The translations under genes and the position numbers were made by a program. Source: Allocoleopsis franciscana PCC 7113 (GTDB taxonomy: Bacteria > Cyanobacteriota > Cyanobacteriia > Cyanobacteriales > Coleofasciculaceae). Taken from it: DNA of 64,000 bases. The notes below the pieces were generated by a model that did no database searches, was not told where the DNA came from, and saw nothing but the letters and a program-made list of their open reading frames with translations. The stretch spans positions 7,280,001 through 7,344,000 of the forward strand of contig NC_019738.1 of the NCBI RefSeq assembly GCF_000317515.1. The letters run 5' to 3'. Shown in pieces: positions 13,833 to 21,632 of this stretch (the first letter of the stretch is position 1; the number at the start of each line of letters is the position of its first letter).

Positions 13833-15602
13833 CTAGCGGATGGAAAGCTGACGTTTGAGGATACTGACGACTTCACCGGGATTGGCTGTGGGTTGCAGAG
13901 GACTCCACTCACGCACTTCAGCAAATCGGAGACGGTATAAGGTTTGAATGATGTTGTTGACTCCTTTGGGAGAGCCAATGATTAGGATTTTGACAGGTTC
14001 TCGGTTTGAGGTGGGTTCTGGGGAGAGTGGAATGATGGGCGTTTCACTAGCATCGGGGCTATGATATGCACTTTGAATCAAATCTTGATATTTTTGGGAA
14101 GTTCTTACCTCCTTGCCCTTCAAGTCCCAAAAGCGAACGGTTTTTGTTTCAATTTCCATAGTAGTCACTAACTTGCCATTTGAGCTAAAACGTACCTCAA
14201 TGACACGGTCTTTATGTCCGCTTAGCCGATTTCTTTCTTTAACTCCATAAACCACTCTCTGTAGAGTTCCCATCACTTGACTACGTAAATTTGGGTCTGG
14301 CCAGACTGCTTGCCAGATTGAGGATTCAAGCTTTCTTCCTACTTTTAAAATTCCTGTTAAGGCTTCTAAATCCTGGTTCGAGGATAGCCACATTTCTGAA
14401 GTAATTATTGAAGCCTGAAGTTGAGCAATTTCTGATTTTCTGGCTGTAATTCCAGCTAAGAGCGTTAATCCTGCCATCACTACAGCAGCTACAGTCGAGC
14501 CGATAGCAATTCTCCGAGTCTGCTTGGCATTTTTTTTCTGTTCTGCTAGTCTTGCTTCCGCTTCCTTAGCCCGTTCCTCCTGCAAACGCAGCATTTCAGC
14601 TTGTCGGCGTTTTTCGGCTTCCTCTGCTGCTTCAATAGCGTTTTGACTTGCCACAATAATTTCCTCCTGCAACACAGTCGCGGCTGGTTGTTTCTTTTGT
14701 TGCTCCGTTTCCTGCAACCAGTTTTGAGCGATCGCAAATTCACTACCCCGCAACAGCAAATCAGCACTTTTCCCCTTAGAGTCCCACTCAATCGCCCTCT
14801 GCAACCATTTCGTATGATTGTGAACGTGTTCCCGGTCAGTATCGAGCGTTCTCACCAACTGGTTAAAATTAGCATTGAAATCCCGCTCATTCTGATTAAA
14901 ATCAATCCACTGCATCTTCGCTAATTCCGGATGCAAATCTGCCGAATTTACATCCCGATGCAGCACTGTCACAAACCGCTTATTCAACGAAGCTGCATAC
15001 TCCACCTCATCCGCACAGTAAGTCGAATTTACTGAGCGCGGAGAGAGAATAAATAAAAAGTTATCACAGGCTTTAATTCCGCGATAAATCTCCTGCTGAA
15101 AATCACTCCCCGATGCAATACTTTCTTGATCAAACCAAGTCGTTTTACCCTGAATCTGTAGGCTATCGTTGAGTTTTCTAGCAAAATCCGCGTCAGCACG
15201 GGAATAGGAAACAAACACATCCAGCGAACTTGCAGGCGGTTGCCGCAAACTTTCAGCAATAAATTCTTCCTGTAACGGTATGGGTGGATGCTGTGTCCTT
15301 CGCTTCGCCACCTTCAACCAAGTTTCAGCACTCCGCAGGTTATACCCTCGCAGCAGAATACTCGGATTTTCGTGCTGCTGCTTCCACTTCAGCGCTTTCG
15401 TCAGTAAAACTTTATGCTCGTTATAGTAAGCCTCATCCTGATGCAAAATCCTCAACAGTTGGCTTTCATCAAGTAAGTAATCGTCTTCTTTTACATTGTC
15501 GGTGAGGTCAATATACTGCAAATCCCGCAACCCATTCGGTATCGGTATCGTCAGCGACATCAACTCCTCTGCCATCTCGAAGTTTGCAGTAACACTTTGC
15601 AC
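13833..15602 (-). CDS. Truncated TIR-TM-WD40 paralogue with captured yebC tail
   Basis: 589 residues from a GTG start (15602); an in-frame TAG lies a few codons upstream, so translation must begin at this GTG or at the ATG of MAEELM. Residues 1-18 repeat the C-terminus of the nearby YebC. After a join at IPIPNGLRDLQY the protein follows the neighbouring large TIR protein: helical linker (about 50-118), one TIR domain (about 126-250, candidate catalytic E199 in YCADEVE), a second linker, a charged coiled coil (about 320-362), one membrane helix (about 365-387) and a single leftover WD40 repeat (about 458-500). A C-terminal segment (about 537-589) with REWSPLQP is not in the large protein. TIR1, TIR2 and 13 WD40 repeats are missing. 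It may be a reduced but expressed TIR protein or a decaying copy. Confidence 0.8.
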   Translation of the reverse strand: MQSVTANFEMAEELMSLTIPIPNGLRDLQYIDLTDNVKEDDYLLDESQLLRILHQDEAYYNEHKVLLTKALKWKQQHENPSILLRGYNLRSAETWLKVAKRRTQHPPIPLQEEFIAESLRQPPASSLDVFVSYSRADADFARKLNDSLQIQGKTTWFDQESIASGSDFQQEIYRGIKACDNFLFILSPRSVNSTYCADEVEYAASLNKRFVTVLHRDVNSADLHPELAKMQWIDFNQNERDFNANFNQLVRTLDTDREHVHNHTKWLQRAIEWDSKGKSADLLLRGSEFAIAQNWLQETEQQKKQPAATVLQEEIIVASQNAIEAAEEAEKRRQAEMLRLQEERAKEAEARLAEQKKNAKQTRRIAIGSTVAAVVMAGLTLLAGITARKSEIAQLQASIITSEMWLSSNQDLEALTGILKVGRKLESSIWQAVWPDPNLRSQVMGTLQRVVYGVKERNRLSGHKDRVIEVRFSSNGKLVTTMEIETKTVRFWDLKGKEVRTSQKYQDLIQSAYHSPDASETPIIPLSPEPTSNREPVKILIIGSPKGVNNIIQTLYRLRFAEVREWSPLQPTANPGEVVSILKRQLSIR

Positions 15603-15604
15603 AT
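15547..15604. repeat. 58-bp direct repeat, copy of yebC 3' end
   Basis: Identical at 57 of 58 positions to 20869-20926 (the only difference is A for C), in the same orientation. At 20869-20926 it is the authentic end of yebC; here it forms the 5' end of the truncated TIR gene, in the yebC reading frame. The two copies bracket the large TIR gene and its small neighbour. Confidence 0.95.
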
Positions 15605-15656
15605 AAAACAGACGCTAAGCCCCTACAAGGACGTATCTCTCACTCTCGCTTCTCTC

Positions 15657-16238
15657 TTAACGGTTCAGAAATGCTAGGGTGTGTCCCCTACTTGCCTTAG
15701 TAGAGACTCTATTCACGACAGTTTTTCCTTTAGTCTTACGAGTCTTATATGCCAAAACAGAAGACGATGGGGATGTATTGGAGGGAATTTTAGTGGCTGC
15801 GACTTGAAATGGAAAGGATTGGGATAAAGAAAACTCATTCACTGCTTCATCAAGCGATTCATTAATCAGTTGATTTAAGGTATTACCCGGAAATCTCTGG
15901 GTGATTTGTTTATAGGTAAGTTTGTCATCCAACCTATTGCCGTCCTTAGCATCACCCTTATCTCGAAGAGCATTCATTACGACACCAAAAAGTTCTGCGG
16001 TGTAGTAATCTTTATCTACATCAACGCCCCCATCGATCAACTCGACCACAAAGAGGCAATAGACTTGCCGCTCACTGTATCTATTTAGGTTTCGCTTTCT
16101 GGGGTAATTCTTGACTTCTTGGTAGCAATTCTCAAAAGAAGGAAACTCCTGCGAGTGGACGGGATAGCTACTCAGTGTAAGTACCAACCCTAGCAACAAG
16201 GCAGCAACAAATTGGGTAATTTTTCTGAATGGCATCAT
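15657..16238 (-). CDS. Small secreted protein in the TIR operon
   Basis: About 193 residues. An AAAGGAG ribosome binding site lies just before tandem ATG codons (16238 and 16235), which argues against the further-upstream start that would overlap the TIR gene by 20 bases. The N-terminus is a signal peptide (MMPFRKITQFVAALLLGLVL, cleavage probably after VHS). The mature protein has two Cys near its start (ENCYQEV, RQVYCLF), an alpha-helical middle and a basic Ser/Thr/Lys-rich tail. I recognise no family. It begins 7 bases after the stop of the 1390-residue TIR protein on the same strand, so co-transcription is likely. Confidence 0.75.
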   Translation of the reverse strand: MMPFRKITQFVAALLLGLVLTLSSYPVHSQEFPSFENCYQEVKNYPRKRNLNRYSERQVYCLFVVELIDGGVDVDKDYYTAELFGVVMNALRDKGDAKDGNRLDDKLTYKQITQRFPGNTLNQLINESLDEAVNEFSLSQSFPFQVAATKIPSNTSPSSSVLAYKTRKTKGKTVVNRVSTKASRGHTLAFLNR

Positions 16239-16245
16239 TACTCCT

Positions 16246-19200
16246 TTAGTGATCAATTCCATCACATAGAACGCGATCGCTCTTGTCTAAGGTTGGATTG
16301 TGCTGTAAGTAATTGCTTACCCAAGCACAACTTTTTGTCAGTAGTTGATCCAATGACAAGCCCCCAGCCAACTGATTGCCAACCTTACTAGACCTCAAAT
16401 TCCAGATGATGATAGTTTGATCGTCACTGGCAGAGGCGACGGTTGTACCCTCTGGGCTAAAGCTGATGTCATTGACCCAATTAGTATGTCCATCCAGTAT
16501 CTGAAGGGGTTCACCCGATGCAGTCCAGACTCTGAGTGTGTTATCTTCACCCGCAGAGACGAGGAGTTTTCCATCTCGGCTAAAACTCAGACTGTTAACC
16601 GAAGCGGTGTGACCTCTGGCAATCTTCAGTAATTGTCCTGTCCGGGTCCAAAAGCGGATTGTGCGATCGCCACCAGTTGAGACAATAGTTTGACCATCCG
16701 GGCTGAAAATCACGTTCCTCACTATGTTCTGATGCCCTTGCAGGGTATGGAGTATTTGCCCTGTAAGGCTCCAGAGTTTAACGGTTTGATCTGCACTTGC
16801 TGAGGCAAGGGTTTGTCCATCGGGGCTGAAGCTGAGATTAGTGATTGCCCCTTTGTGTCCCTCAAAGGTACGTAATAATTGCCCTTGCCGATTCCAGAGT
16901 TTAACAGTGTTATCTTCACTCGCTGAGGCGATGGTTTGTCCATCGGGGCTAAAACGCACCGCAGTAATCGGTTTCTCGTGCTCGTCTAAGGTATTGATTG
17001 GCTGTCCCGACAAATCCCACAACTTAATGGTGTTATCTCCGCTAGCGGAAGCAAGGGTTTTTCCATCGGGGCTAAACTGCACACTACCAATGGGCTCAGT
17101 ATGTGCCGGAAAGCCACGAATGAACTCACCCTTGGAGTCGTAAAGATTGATCTTCCCATCATTGCCAGCAGAGGCAAGCAACTTCCCATCTGGGCTGTAG
17201 TGGACGCTGTAAACCGAATCAGTATGATTTGAGAACTGGTGCAGTATAGAACTCGTTGAGTCCCATAACCGGACTGTCCCATCACTACTGGCAGAGGCAA
17301 TGGTCTGACCATCAGGGCTATAGGTGGCTTCATTCACCCAATCCTGATGTCCTCGAATAGTCCGGATTTCTTGACCGGCAAGATTCCATAGTTTAATCGT
17401 CTTATCGAAACTAGAGGTGAGGATAGTCTGACCGTCGGGACTAAAATTAGCGCCAATCACACCCTCGGAATGGACAAATTGCTGGAGTTCTTCCCCTGTA
17501 ATGCTCCATAACCGTGCACTGTGGTCTTCGCTGGCAGAAATAATGGTTTGTCCATCGGGGCTAAAATTAACCTCCCGGACAACAATCTGGTGTCCTGTGA
17601 ATGTTTGTAGTAATTTTCCGTTCCCATCCCAGAGACGGACTGTGTTATTAGTGTTATCTTTATCTGAACCTCCAGATGCAATGCGTTGCCCATCCGGGCT
17701 AAAGGCAACCGTGTTCACCCTGCCAGTATGCCCCTGCCAAGTCTTGATCTGTTTTCCCTCCTGATTCCAGAGGCGGATGGTGCCATCTTCACCCGCAGAA
17801 GCAAGCGTCTGGCCATCTGGGCTAAAACTGACACTCGTCACCATCCCCTCATGCCCTTCCAGGGTATGCAGAGGTTGTCCCTTCAGGTTCCAGAGCTTAA
17901 TTGTCCCATCAGCGCTAGCAGAAGCAATTGACTGACCATCTGGGCTGAAGCGGATACTGCTGATCTCACGTTCATGCCTCTTAATGCTGAACAGTAATCG
18001 TCCCGATCGCTCCCATAGTTTGATCGTGCCATCCCCTCCGCCGGAGACAATGGTTTTCCCATCTGGGCTAAAACTGAGGCTGAGTACTGCTCCGTCGTGT
18101 CCGACAAAGCGATGGATTTCCTTAATCCGGTAAAACGCTTTTTGCCATACATCCTTTACTCGTTGCTGGATTTTGCGTTTATCCTGAGCCTCTAGGGTTT
18201 GAAGTTGTCGTCCTGTCCGGATACTTTCAATCAGGGCATCAAAATCCTGATAGTTATTCAGCCGTGATTCTATGGAATAGGTAAGAGCGTTGATCAGCTT
18301 TGCTTGAGCTGCTTGAGCCTTTCTCGTCGCATTGACAGCCACCACACTAAAGCCCACAGCCGCCATCAATGCCGTAGTGACAGCGACAAGAAAGTACTTT
18401 TGTCGTTTGGCACTTTTTTTCTGTAGAGCCAGTCGTGCTTCAGCTTCCTTTGTGCGTTCCTCCTGTAAACGCAGCATTTCAGATTGGCGGCGTGTTTCTT
18501 CTTTCTCTGCTGCAACAATTGCGTTTTTACTAGCCTCAATAAACTCCTTCTGCAACACAGTCGCAACAGGCTTTTTCTGTTGTTGTTCCGTTTCCTGTAA
18601 CCAGTTCTGTGCAATCAAAAATTCACTGCCCCGCAACAGCAAATCAGTGCTTTTATCCTTCTGTTTCCACTCCAGCGATCGCTGTAACCATTTCGTATGA
18701 CTGTAGACGTGTACCCGATCTGTATCCAGCGTTCTCACCAACTGATTGAAATTGGCATTAAAATCCCGCTCATTGTGATTAAAATCAATCCACTGCACCT
18801 TCGCTAACTCCGGATGCAAGTCGCAGGAATTGATCTCCTGATGCAGCACCGTTACAAAGCGTTTATTCAACCCCGCTGCATACTCCACTTCATCCGCACA
18901 GTAAGGGGAATTTACAGAACGCGGTGAGAGAATAAACAAAAAGTTGTTACAGGCTTTAATCCCCCGATAAATCTCTTGCTGGAAGTCACTCCCTGAGGCA
19001 ATACTTTCCTGGTCAAACCAAGTCGTCTTACCCTGAATCTGTAAGCTATCATTCAGCTTTCGAGCAAAGTCCGAGTCCGCACGGGAATAGGAAACAAACA
19101 CATCCAGTGACTCTAATGGCAGTTGCCGCAGACTTTCCTCAATAAATTCTTCCTGTAGTAACGTCGGTGGTTGCTGTGTCCTTTTCTTTGCTACCTTCAA

Positions 19201-20418
19201 CCAAGTTTCAGCACTCCGCAAGTTATACCCTCGCAGCAGAATGCTAGGATTTTCGTGCTGCCGCTTCCATTTCAGCGCTTTAGCCAGCAGAATTTTATGC
19301 TCGTTGTAGTAAGCCGCATCCTGATGAAAAATCTTCAACAGTTGGCTTTCATCAAGCAGGTAATCATCTTCCTGCACATTGTCCGTGAGGTCGATATACT
19401 GCAAAGAACGCAATGCACTAGGTACCTGATTGAGGTCAGTCTCCCGCACCAATATCGGTATAATCCGCTTGGAGAGCGACAATGCCAAATCCAATTCTTG
19501 CTGACAATAGGTAGAGTTGACCGATTCAGGCGAAAGCAAAAAGACCAAATTATCCGCTTGCTCAATTCCTCGCTTAATCGCCTCCTCAAACGCTTCCCCC
19601 GTTTGAATATCCGTCTTATTCGTCCAAACGGTAATGCTTTCTCGTCTCAAGCTATTGCGAATCTTCTCCATCGTCGCCCTATCCTCATCGGCGTATGAGA
19701 GAAACACCTGAGTCATCAAGTTATGGGCATTTTTGATACTTTCGGTGATGTATTCACAATGCAAATTGGTAGGAGTACAAGGAGGTTGCTCGTCTCTAAA
19801 GCGTATCTTGAGCCAAGCTTCTGCTTGTTGTCGTTCTTCTCCAATTAATAGATAGCTGGTTTGTTTTTGATTGCGCTCCCACTCTAAGGCTTTGGCTAAA
19901 AATTGGGTATGTGCCTCGACATAATCCCGATGTCTACTCAACAGGCTCATCAAGCCTGTAAACGAAGTCTCAAAATCATCGACTCCCTCTCGAAAATACA
20001 CCCAGTTAATCTTGCCGATCGCAGGGTGCATATTGGGAAAACTCGAATGTAACCCTTTCTGTCTATACGCTTCCCAATCCTCAACTGTTCCTGTCGGAAA
20101 TCTCTGCTGCCAAGTTTCCTGTGTAATTTGCTCAACGTGCAAAAGCGGAATAATTCGCTTATTTCGCTTCAGCGCCAGCTCAATTTCTTTACCACAATAG
20201 GGCGAATTAATGGAATGGGGTGCAATGAGAAATAGGAAGTTATGCGCCTTCTCAATGCCGTCATCAATTTGGTTTTGAAAATCTACCCCAAGCGGAATAT
20301 CATTTTGATCAAACCAGACGTTTAAACCTTGTTCCAGTAAGTGAGCATGAAGTTTTGTAGCAAATGCTTTACTATCTGCTCTCCCATAGGAGATGAAGGC
20401 ATCAAATAAATTTCCCAT
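16246..20418 (-). CDS. Triple-TIR, membrane-anchored, 14-repeat WD40 protein
   Basis: 1390 residues. Three TIR domains lie at about 5-160, 235-345 and 438-560, each followed by a related helical linker of about 65 residues (motif H..L..AL.W...LL.G...A..WL....EFI..S). Each TIR keeps the Cys-x2-Glu of the NADase-type active-site helix: E78 (YCGKEIE), E308 (YCQQELD) and E510 (YCADEVE). A charged coiled coil (about 635-672) leads to one membrane helix (about 675-697). From about 768 there are 14 WD40 repeats (SFSPDGQTLASAS...IKLW), enough for two seven-blade propellers. Bacterial TIR proteins often cleave NAD or make cyclic ADP-ribose signals, many in phage defence; WD40 propellers bind partners. 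The role here is inferred. It heads a unit with the small secreted protein. Confidence 0.93.
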   Translation of the reverse strand: MGNLFDAFISYGRADSKAFATKLHAHLLEQGLNVWFDQNDIPLGVDFQNQIDDGIEKAHNFLFLIAPHSINSPYCGKEIELALKRNKRIIPLLHVEQITQETWQQRFPTGTVEDWEAYRQKGLHSSFPNMHPAIGKINWVYFREGVDDFETSFTGLMSLLSRHRDYVEAHTQFLAKALEWERNQKQTSYLLIGEERQQAEAWLKIRFRDEQPPCTPTNLHCEYITESIKNAHNLMTQVFLSYADEDRATMEKIRNSLRRESITVWTNKTDIQTGEAFEEAIKRGIEQADNLVFLLSPESVNSTYCQQELDLALSLSKRIIPILVRETDLNQVPSALRSLQYIDLTDNVQEDDYLLDESQLLKIFHQDAAYYNEHKILLAKALKWKRQHENPSILLRGYNLRSAETWLKVAKKRTQQPPTLLQEEFIEESLRQLPLESLDVFVSYSRADSDFARKLNDSLQIQGKTTWFDQESIASGSDFQQEIYRGIKACNNFLFILSPRSVNSPYCADEVEYAAGLNKRFVTVLHQEINSCDLHPELAKVQWIDFNHNERDFNANFNQLVRTLDTDRVHVYSHTKWLQRSLEWKQKDKSTDLLLRGSEFLIAQNWLQETEQQQKKPVATVLQKEFIEASKNAIVAAEKEETRRQSEMLRLQEERTKEAEARLALQKKSAKRQKYFLVAVTTALMAAVGFSVVAVNATRKAQAAQAKLINALTYSIESRLNNYQDFDALIESIRTGRQLQTLEAQDKRKIQQRVKDVWQKAFYRIKEIHRFVGHDGAVLSLSFSPDGKTIVSGGGDGTIKLWERSGRLLFSIKRHEREISSIRFSPDGQSIASASADGTIKLWNLKGQPLHTLEGHEGMVTSVSFSPDGQTLASAGEDGTIRLWNQEGKQIKTWQGHTGRVNTVAFSPDGQRIASGGSDKDNTNNTVRLWDGNGKLLQTFTGHQIVVREVNFSPDGQTIISASEDHSARLWSITGEELQQFVHSEGVIGANFSPDGQTILTSSFDKTIKLWNLAGQEIRTIRGHQDWVNEATYSPDGQTIASASSDGTVRLWDSTSSILHQFSNHTDSVYSVHYSPDGKLLASAGNDGKINLYDSKGEFIRGFPAHTEPIGSVQFSPDGKTLASASGDNTIKLWDLSGQPINTLDEHEKPITAVRFSPDGQTIASASEDNTVKLWNRQGQLLRTFEGHKGAITNLSFSPDGQTLASASADQTVKLWSLTGQILHTLQGHQNIVRNVIFSPDGQTIVSTGGDRTIRFWTRTGQLLKIARGHTASVNSLSFSRDGKLLVSAGEDNTLRVWTASGEPLQILDGHTNWVNDISFSPEGTTVASASDDQTIIIWNLRSSKVGNQLAGGLSLDQLLTKSCAWVSNYLQHNPTLDKSDRVLCDGIDH

Positions 20419-20547
20419 GTAAATGCACTCGGTTTAGCAAAGGTATTTCCCAAAGAAACGAGACTAGGAGATTTATCGTTGGCTTGAGTTGTGTGTTAAG
20501 GATGCATTTTTGTCCGATTGAGATATCGCACAAATAAAAACTCCAGC

Positions 20548-20567
20548 GTTTCAATACAAATTGAAAC
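20548..20567. promoter_or_regulatory. Perfect dyad upstream of the TIR operon
   Basis: GTTTCAAT-N4-ATTGAAAC, 8-bp perfect arms, 130 bases upstream of the TIR gene start. The symmetry suits a dimeric regulator. It resembles the ends of some CRISPR repeats, but it occurs once and has no spacers. Confidence 0.45.
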
Positions 20568-20708
20568 ACCAAATAAATCTACCTAAAAGGTGGTGACACA
20601 AGATTATCTTTCTATAGGACTATATCAAAAGTGGTAGATAAATGGTCTTTCTTTGTGAAAATTTCAGAAAAAAGAAAGCTTTCCTCCAACGGGCGCGAAC
20701 CTAGTACA

Positions 20709-20743
20709 AGAAGGCAGAAGGCAGGAGGCAGAAGGCAGAAGGT
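20709..20743. repeat. Short tandem heptamer repeat (STRR)
   Basis: Five tandem 7-mers of the form AGAAGGC (one AGGAGGC, one AGAAGGT). Heptameric STRRs are well known in cyanobacterial intergenic DNA. The complementary array CTTCTGC lies on the far side of yebC at 21756-21776. Confidence 0.85.
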
Positions 20744-20861
20744 TGAAAGGCTTATACTTTCTACTTTTGGCTCTTTCATTAACTGGTCACTTATTTCCGC
20801 CATGCTGCACTAGATGAACCCACTGTGTAGAGGAAAGCTTTAGTTGTCTGTATTCCAGCCG

Positions 20862-21632
20862 CTACACCATCGTCAGCGACATCAACTCCTCTGCCATCTC
20901 GAAGTTTGCAGTCACACTTTGCACATCGTCCAAGTCTTCCAAAGCATCCATCAACTTGAGGAGCGATCGCGCTAAATCTGGCTCAGTTACTTCTATCGTA
21001 TTGCTCGGAATCCAACGCAACTCTGCCTCACGCACCGGCAAGCCTTGTTCCTTCAACGTTTGATTCAAAGTTTCCAGATTGCTGACTTCAGTAAACACCT
21101 CCGCTACCGGGGTGTCCTCCTCTTCCTCCGATAGCTCATAAGTCTGTGCTCCCCCTTCCAAAGATGCTTCCAACAACTGCTCTTCCGCCACAGCACCCGC
21201 CAGAATAACCACGCCTTTTTGTTCAAACATCCAGGAGACACAACCCGTCTCACCGAGATTACCCCCATTTTTCGTGAAAGCCGCCCGCAAATCAGCCGCC
21301 GTGCGATTGCGATTATCGGTCAGCGCTTCAATTAAAATGGCGACACCACTAGGGCCATAACCTTCGTAGCGAATTTCTTCAAGATTGTCGTTATCGTTGC
21401 CCAGTTGTCCAGAACCCTTAGCGATCGCCCGATCAATATTGTCATTGGGGATTCCCGCCGCTTTTGCTTTATCAATCGCGGTACGCAGTCGGAAATTACC
21501 TTCCGGATCGGGGACACCCATGCGAGCCGCAACTATAATCTCCCGTGAGAGCTTAGCAAAGGTTTTCCCCTTTACGGCATCCACTCTCGCTTTCTGACGC
21601 TTAATATTCGCCCATTTACTGTGTCCTGCCAT
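20862..21632 (-). CDS. yebC: YebC/PmpR family protein
   Basis: 256 residues with the family start [19 protein letters not shown], the [26 protein letters not shown] helix region, the Gly-rich [21 protein letters not shown] segment and the SVTANFEM end. It is a widely conserved protein, described both as a DNA-binding regulator and, for some members, as a ribosome-associated factor for polyproline translation. Length and motifs are complete. Its last 58 bases are duplicated at the 5' end of the truncated TIR gene, and inverted heptamer arrays stand on each side. Confidence 0.95.
20869..20926. repeat. 58-bp direct repeat, original copy in yebC
   Basis: The partner of 15547-15604 (57 of 58 identical, same orientation). 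It encodes the last residues of YebC, so this copy is the likely source. Confidence 0.95.

What the first reader, a model, noticed from the sequence alone, without database searches (positions are those of the whole stretch)
16246..20418. Protein with three TIR modules, a membrane helix and a double WD40 propeller
Seen: three TIR domains, each with its own 65-residue helical linker, all keeping the active-site-type Glu (E78, E308, E510), then one membrane helix and 14 WD40 repeats. Known: bacterial TIR domains can destroy NAD or make cyclic ADP-ribose signals, and TIR is active when oligomerised. Inference: three TIRs in one chain may be a pre-assembled, membrane-held effector whose 14 blades sense a trigger (phage protein or stress ligand). 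The triple module is uncommon, and the repeated linker suggests unit-by-unit growth.
Basis: partly seen in the sequence, partly recalled or inferred. Interest (0 to 1): 0.75.

Follow-up and report, generated by a model that had tools for sequence, protein, structure and literature searches.

The report
Bacterial membrane receptor with three TIRs
A cyanobacterial gene encodes a membrane-spanning protein that joins three TIR domains (the NAD-cutting and alarm-signalling domains of innate immunity) to a fast-changing sensor that probably lies outside the cytoplasm; it belongs to a widespread, apparently undescribed family that looks like a bacterial counterpart of a Toll-type receptor.

Summary
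In detail: window 16246-20418 (-) encodes 1390 aa with three TIR domains, three helical linkers, one membrane helix and 14 WD40 repeats, predicted as 56 strands (two 7-bladed propellers). E78, E308 and E510 are correctly placed.

The inference needs correcting. 110 non-redundant triple-TIR relatives from cyanobacteria, plus one Bacteroidota plasmid, keep the order TIR1-TIR2-TIR3. Each position is its own clade, so the triplet is ancient, not growing unit by unit. The three TIRs are unequal. TIR1 keeps the full S-D-S-E active-site set in 110/110; TIR2 never has the Asp; TIR3 is eroding (88/110).

The C-terminal half is interchangeable: WD40x14 or CHASE2, an extracytoplasmic sensor. Charge bias also places the TIRs inside and the sensor outside. 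At the orthologous locus of a sister species the TIR part is 87-92% identical but the propeller only 50%. The most variable propeller positions are those under positive selection in fungal allorecognition propellers.

Many loci carry SLATT pore, LSDAT/SLOG or patatin genes nearby, as in known conflict systems.

Best reading: a diversifying transmembrane immune-type receptor whose TIR1 makes or destroys an NAD-derived signal. Trigger and enzyme activity are untested.

The parts
16246..20418 (-). TIR(x3)-TM-WD40(x14) receptor gene, 1390 aa (P0001)
19933..20409 (-). TIR1, residues 4-162; invariant S10-D37-S72-E78 set
19723..19932 (-). helical linker 1, residues 163-232
19318..19722 (-). TIR2, residues 233-367; E308 kept, active-site Asp replaced (N267)
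19111..19317 (-). helical linker 2, residues 368-436
18718..19110 (-). TIR3, residues 437-567; E510 present here but lost in 14/110 relatives
18499..18717 (-). helical linker 3, residues 568-640
18328..18396 (-). predicted membrane helix, about residues 675-697, preceded by a charged coiled region
16393..18120 (-). 14 WD40 repeats, residues 767-1342 (two predicted 7-bladed propellers)
16249..16392 (-). C-terminal tail with conserved Cys pair (C1364, C1385)
15657..16265 (-). P0003, 202 aa, putative signal peptide, overlaps the 3' end of the receptor gene; rare family found only beside triple-TIR WD40 genes (2/386 genomes)
13833..15602 (-). P0002, truncated and fused second copy: yebC tail + end of TIR2 + TIR3 + linker + TM + one WD40 remnant + unrelated tail
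15547..15604 (-). 58-bp direct repeat of the yebC 3' end (copy of 20869-20926, 98%)
20862..21632 (-). yebC (flanking housekeeping gene, syntenic in the sister species)

Best explanation
The gene encodes a single-pass membrane receptor. The three TIR domains and their helical linkers lie in the cytoplasm. The C-terminal double WD40 propeller lies on the other side of the membrane and acts as the sensor. When the sensor binds a foreign or stress ligand, the receptors cluster or change shape. That completes an NAD-cleaving site centred on TIR1, with TIR2 and perhaps TIR3 serving as built-in partner domains, since known TIR active sites are shared between two neighbouring TIRs. The product either depletes NAD or, more likely where LSDAT/SLOG, SLATT or patatin genes are nearby, is an ADP-ribose-type signal that switches on a membrane-damaging effector and stops or kills the cell. 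Shown here: architecture, folds, conservation, asymmetry of the three sites, sensor exchange and diversification, gene neighbourhoods. Inferred: topology, enzymatic product, ligand, outcome.
For: TIR folds match NADase TIRs: SARM1 Z 18-19, SPARTA TIR-APAZ Z 18-19, AbTir Z 17.4. Cat1 S7/D33/S68/E74 equivalents are all present in TIR1 of 110/110 relatives (Cat1 residues from PMC12162218). Topology: Lys+Arg in the 15 residues before vs after the TM is 5.2 vs 2.8 (72/79 proteins N>C) in the WD40 class and 5.0 vs 1.6 (24/25) in the CHASE2 class; CHASE2 replaces the propeller in 25 relatives, including an own-genome paralogue. Sensor diversification: N part more conserved than C part in 99.4% of 2485 pairs; at the orthologous yebC locus of the sister species TIR1 to TIR3 are 87-92% identical and WD40 50%, with flanks 91-94% DNA identity. 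Variability peaks at repeat positions 11, 13, 29, 31 (with 9, 10) flanking V12 and D30, matching codons 7, 9, 25, 27 flanking 8 and 26 under positive selection in fungal het-d/het-e (PMC1805685). Conflict neighbourhood: SLATT/DUF4231 is rare (23 copies in 20 genomes), yet 7 lie within 6 kb of a triple-TIR gene; expected 0.07. LSDAT, patatin and TPR-S genes recur too. SLATT is a predicted ADPr-derivative-regulated membrane effector (PMC9503650).
Against: No enzymatic or phenotypic data. The window copy itself has no SLATT, LSDAT or patatin gene beside it; its neighbours are yebC, P0003 and a broken copy. The CHASE2 class sits instead with DUF928, CHAT-TPR and two-partner-secretion genes, which suggests roles other than phage defence. 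The WD40 consensus contains no Cys, so Cys depletion does not prove an oxidising compartment. Charge bias and domain exchange are indirect topology evidence. Defence genes cluster in islands, so neighbourhood enrichment need not mean direct partnership. No relative was found in the viral-contig scan.
Confidence: 0.5

Rival explanations
1. Same immune-type receptor, but the propeller is cytoplasmic: the hydrophobic helix only anchors or re-enters the membrane, and the WD40 domain senses an intracellular phage or stress protein, as in NLR/Apaf-1-like proteins.
For: Nearest structural analogues of the sensor include intracellular Apaf-1; the same coil-TM-WD40 chassis is fused to AAA_35 and caspase-nSTAND1 modules, whose relatives are usually thought intracellular; two WD-class relatives fall below the membrane-helix cut-off.
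Against: CHASE2 exchange at the same position and consistent positive-inside bias; conserved C-terminal Cys pair in 63/73 WD40 proteins; a rare signal-peptide protein adjoins two of the genes.
Confidence: 0.22
2. Environmental or cell-surface signalling receptor, not immunity: TIRs act as a NAD-linked switch regulating adhesion, secretion or development.
For: CHASE2-class genes cluster with DUF928 (19/25), two-partner secretion FHA/FhaC and CHAT-TPR genes; the window copy sits in a housekeeping context next to yebC in two species.
Against: WD40-class sensor diversification on the top face, patchy presence (12/386 genomes), plasmid carriage with transposases, tandem duplicates and SLATT/LSDAT/patatin neighbours look like conflict genes.
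Confidence: 0.15
3. TIRs are non-enzymatic scaffolds that recruit other TIR or effector proteins.
For: TIR2 lacks the active-site Asp in all relatives and TIR3 often lacks the Glu; many TIRs elsewhere are only assembly domains.
Against: TIR1 keeps every tested active-site residue in 110/110 relatives and E308 is kept in 109/110, hard to explain without catalysis.
Confidence: 0.1

Closest known systems
NADase TIR proteins (SARM1, AbTir, SPARTA TIR-APAZ, Cat1)
   Same: TIR fold, catalytic Glu position, full Cat1-type S-D-S-E set in TIR1
   Different: Three unequal TIRs in one chain, a membrane helix, and an exchangeable sensor half
Thoeris and other TIR-SLOG defence
   Same: TIR enzyme predicted to make an ADP-ribose-type signal; SLOG-superfamily (LSDAT) genes near some relatives
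   Different: No ThsA (SIR2-SLOG) gene at the window locus; sensor and TIR are in one membrane protein; executioner in relatives appears to be SLATT or patatin
SLOG-SLATT conflict systems (Aravind group; PMC9503650, PMC7159879)
   Same: TIR, SLOG, SLATT and TPR-S parts occur together in relatives' loci
   Different: Triple-TIR transmembrane receptor not found described in the papers searched
STAND/NLR proteins with WD40 propellers (Apaf-1, HET-E/HET-D, cyanobacterial caspase-nSTAND1-WD40)
   Same: Double WD40 propeller sensor; hypervariable top-face positions as in het-d/het-e; shared coil-TM-WD40 chassis
   Different: No NTPase domain; three TIRs occupy its place
Metazoan Toll/TLR, including mollusc Tolls with tandem TIRs (PMC4929906)
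   Same: Sensor - single membrane helix - cytoplasmic TIR layout (inferred here); more than one TIR per chain
   Different: TIRs are N-terminal, three, NADase-like; sensor is WD40 or CHASE2, not LRR; analogy, not descent
2ymu, highly repetitive propeller (PDB)
   Same: Best structural match of the WD40 half, 52% identity
   Different: Isolated propeller structure, no TIR half

Membership tests
TIR domain family (Pfam TIR_2) | Profile match over curated cut-off | tested here: met
   three stretches, 286 bits vs cut-off 28
TIR domain family (Pfam TIR_2) | TIR fold in each module | tested here: met
   residues 5-164, 235-366 and 436-568 align to solved TIRs at Z about 16-20
NADase TIR | Catalytic Glu plus Ser/Asp pocket residues | tested here: met
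   TIR1 full set 110/110; TIR2 0/110; TIR3 88/110: met for TIR1, not for TIR2
NADase TIR | NAD cleavage on activation | not testable with these tools
   needs enzyme assay
Thoeris | ThsB-type TIR protein with ThsA effector gene alongside | tested here: not met
   neighbours in the window are yebC, P0003, P0002 and a UbiH-like gene; only domain-level similarity to ThsB models
STAND/NLR | P-loop STAND NTPase between effector and sensor | tested here: not met
   residues 1-640 are all TIR and three-helix linkers in a confident model; no NTPase family listed for P0001 and only about 125 aa lie between linker 3 and the propeller
WD40 double propeller | 14 four-stranded blades | tested here: met
   14 WD40 stretches, 56 strands, matches to double propellers
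Toll-like receptor (as an analogue) | Extracytoplasmic sensor, single TM, cytoplasmic TIR | tested here: inconclusive
   charge bias and CHASE2 exchange support it; no direct topology test
Toll-like receptor | LRR ectodomain | tested here: not met
   sensor is WD40

The most novel reading that the evidence does not exclude
A true bacterial counterpart of Toll receptors: a rapidly diversifying extracytoplasmic sensor signals through one membrane helix to a fixed asymmetric TIR trio, in which one catalytic TIR is completed by one or two degenerate partner TIRs in the same chain, producing an ADP-ribose-type messenger read by LSDAT/SLATT or patatin effectors.
Probability: 0.35. Interest if true: 0.85.

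Novelty: new variant of a known kind. Interest (0 to 1): 0.64.

Why it matters
If right, bacteria have their own transmembrane TIR receptors with exchangeable, diversifying sensors, arranged like Toll receptors and diversified like fungal allorecognition genes. The fixed, unequal TIR trio is also a natural covalent model of the multi-TIR assemblies that other TIR enzymes must build by clustering, so it makes the question of which TIR catalyses and which one completes the site directly testable in one chain.

Tried and rejected
Unit-by-unit growth of TIR-linker modules: rejected, because each position is monophyletic across 110 proteins. Three equal NADase units: rejected by the residue pattern. 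Thoeris membership: no ThsA at the locus. Viral origin: the viral-contig scan with A1 found no confirmed relative. Coordinates of the predicted models were not available in the Python box, so the relative placement of the BB loops and Glu residues in the trio could not be measured. dN/dS at top-face positions is raised (often 3-10 times core dN), but dS is saturated in most pairs and one close pair shows none, so positive selection is not claimed. Literature searches found no description of this triple architecture; subscription papers were not searched. Cys depletion of the propeller was considered as topology evidence and downgraded because the WD40 consensus lacks Cys.
Full report
OBSERVATION. 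The ORF 16246..20418 on the minus strand runs from an ATG for 1390 aa. Pfam reports three TIR_2 stretches and 14 WD40 stretches. Each TIR is followed by a three-helix linker, and a single hydrophobic helix lies near residue 677. AlphaFold models are confident: residues 1-640 pLDDT 90.4, pTM 0.87; residues 720-1390 pLDDT 90.9, pTM 0.76, with 56 strands = 14 blades.

TIR FOLDS. All three modules align to solved TIRs: SARM1, SPARTA TIR-APAZ, AbTir and TLR-type TIRs at Z about 16-20. By sequence the closest chains include Cat1, SARM1 and AbTIR.

A FIXED, ANCIENT TRIPLET. 222 relatives were found in named genomes and 78 loci fetched, plus loci. Among non-redundant ORFs the unit count is three in about 110. 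It is one in 13 (TIR-linker-TM-WD40, including own-genome P0006; one of the 13 has no WD40) and five in one (L178). Apparent two-unit cases are cut by contig ends or broken. In a tree of all TIR units, TIR1, TIR2 and TIR3 each form one clade holding all 110 members (support 0.98-0.99). The five-unit protein reads TIR1-TIR2-TIR1-x-TIR3, its fourth unit being too short to place, and single-unit TIRs lie nearest TIR3. So the triplet arose once and has been kept; the only visible change in number looks like repetition of the TIR1-TIR2 pair. Caveat: the search queries favour triple proteins, so rare two- or four-unit forms may be missed.

THE THREE SITES ARE UNEQUAL. Using the Cat1 pocket residues S7, D33, S68, E74 (PMC12162218) as a guide, TIR1 keeps S-D-S-E in 110/110. 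TIR2 keeps the Ser302 and Glu equivalents in 109/110 each but never has the Asp (Asn in 86) and often lacks the first Ser. TIR3 has the full set in 88/110, with the Glu replaced (mostly Gln) in 14, in about 10 separate changes. TIR1 is therefore the likely catalytic centre. [quoted passage not shown] TIR2 and TIR3 may be built-in partners. That last step is inference.

TOPOLOGY AND SENSOR EXCHANGE. In 25 relatives the WD40 half is replaced by a CHASE2-type half (Pfam 1.7e-54 in own-genome P0005 and 7.2e-62 in P0009; the rest assigned by the same length and membrane-helix pattern). CHASE2 is described as an extracellular small-molecule receptor domain (PMC8195603). The sensor class changes about 11 times on the TIR tree. 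Positive charge is higher on the TIR side of the membrane helix in 72/79 WD40 and 24/25 CHASE2 proteins. The tail after the propeller carries a Cys pair in 63/73 WD40 proteins, while 52/74 propeller bodies have no Cys. Together these favour TIRs inside and sensor outside, without proving it. The coil-TM-WD40 chassis is shared with AAA_35 and caspase-nSTAND1 proteins, so the TIR trio seems to occupy the place of an NTPase module.

SENSOR DIVERSIFICATION. Over 2485 pairs of WD40-class proteins, the TIR part is more conserved than the propeller in 99.4%. At the orthologous locus in a species of the same genus (L044: yebC - receptor - UbiH-like gene) the flanks are 91-94% identical in DNA. TIR1 to TIR3 are 87-92% identical in protein, linker 3 is 69%, the coil/TM 31% and the propeller 50%. 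Synonymous distance is 0.67 in the TIR part but saturated in the propeller, so the sensor was probably exchanged, not merely mutated. Within the repeat, variability peaks at positions 9, 10, 11, 13, 29 and 31. Positions 11/13 and 29/31 flank the conserved V12 and D30, with the same 18-residue spacing as the four codons under positive selection in fungal het-d/het-e (7, 9, 25, 27 around 8 and 26; PMC1805685). This is a match of location, not a proof of selection here.

NEIGHBOURHOODS. WD40-class loci recurrently hold tandem receptor copies (19 loci), SLATT/DUF4231 (14-16), LSDAT_prok, a SLOG in TRPM family (9), TPR-S or cyclase-like genes (6-7) and patatin (5-6). Four loci have LSDAT-patatin-receptor on one strand (L081, L085, L087, L088). 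SLATT has only 23 copies in 20 relatives' genomes (131 Mb); 7 lie within 6 kb of one of about 35 triple-TIR genes, expected 0.07. Island clustering could inflate this, but several pairs are 74-500 bp apart on the same strand. In the window's own genome, LSDAT and SLATT lie 4-5 kb from the single-TIR gene. CHASE2-class loci instead hold DUF928, two-partner secretion and CHAT-TPR genes. The family is patchy: 12/386 sampled genomes of the phylum. It also occurs on plasmids, including Bernardetia (Bacteroidota) among transposases.

THE WINDOW LOCUS. Downstream lies P0003, a 202-aa putative signal-peptide protein found in 2/386 genomes, both times directly after a triple-TIR WD40 gene. Next is P0002, a broken copy: 14524-15541 is 84% identical to 18407-19424, and 15547-15604 is a 98% copy of the yebC 3' end at 20869-20926. 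Its tail matches a stretch downstream of the receptor in the sister species. The block is thus flanked by 58-bp direct repeats of yebC, consistent with insertion or unequal crossing-over at this point.

CONCLUSION. The best-supported reading is a diversifying transmembrane TIR receptor. Catalysis by TIR1, the ligand and the outcome are inferences from family knowledge: ThsB signals to SLOG in Thoeris, and SLATT is a predicted ADPr-regulated effector (PMC9503650). No description of this architecture was found in the papers searched.

Noticed in passing
window 13833-15604: Broken tandem copy of the receptor fused to a 58-bp duplicate of the yebC 3' end; the block 15605-20926 is flanked by direct repeats of the yebC end.
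   Followed up: partly
window 15657-16265; L181 10015-10641: Rare putative secreted protein family found in 2/386 genomes, both times immediately downstream of a triple-TIR WD40 gene; possible cognate partner of the sensor.
   Followed up: partly
L178 6434-10963: Five-TIR protein with order TIR1-TIR2-TIR1-x-TIR3 (fourth unit too short to place) and a three-TM C-terminal half.
   Followed up: partly
L066 6961-15001 (own genome): Single-TIR-TM-WD40 gene followed by a 1088-aa TPR-S/SLATT-like gene, LSDAT and SLATT on the same strand: a candidate complete TIR-SLOG-SLATT operon.
   Followed up: partly
L081, L085, L087, L088: LSDAT - patatin phospholipase - triple-TIR receptor on one strand in four loci: candidate signalling-plus-effector operon.
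   Followed up: partly
L146 7989-10496: Triple-TIR protein on a Bernardetia (Bacteroidota) plasmid with transposases nearby; its C-terminal half (about 200 aa) is neither WD40 nor CHASE2 in length or repeat content.
   Followed up: no
L205 2002-3846 and L206 3434-5332 (own genome): Two AAA_35 proteins with a TIR domain in front of the AAA domain, one with a LuxR/sigma-like HTH at the N-terminus.
   Followed up: no
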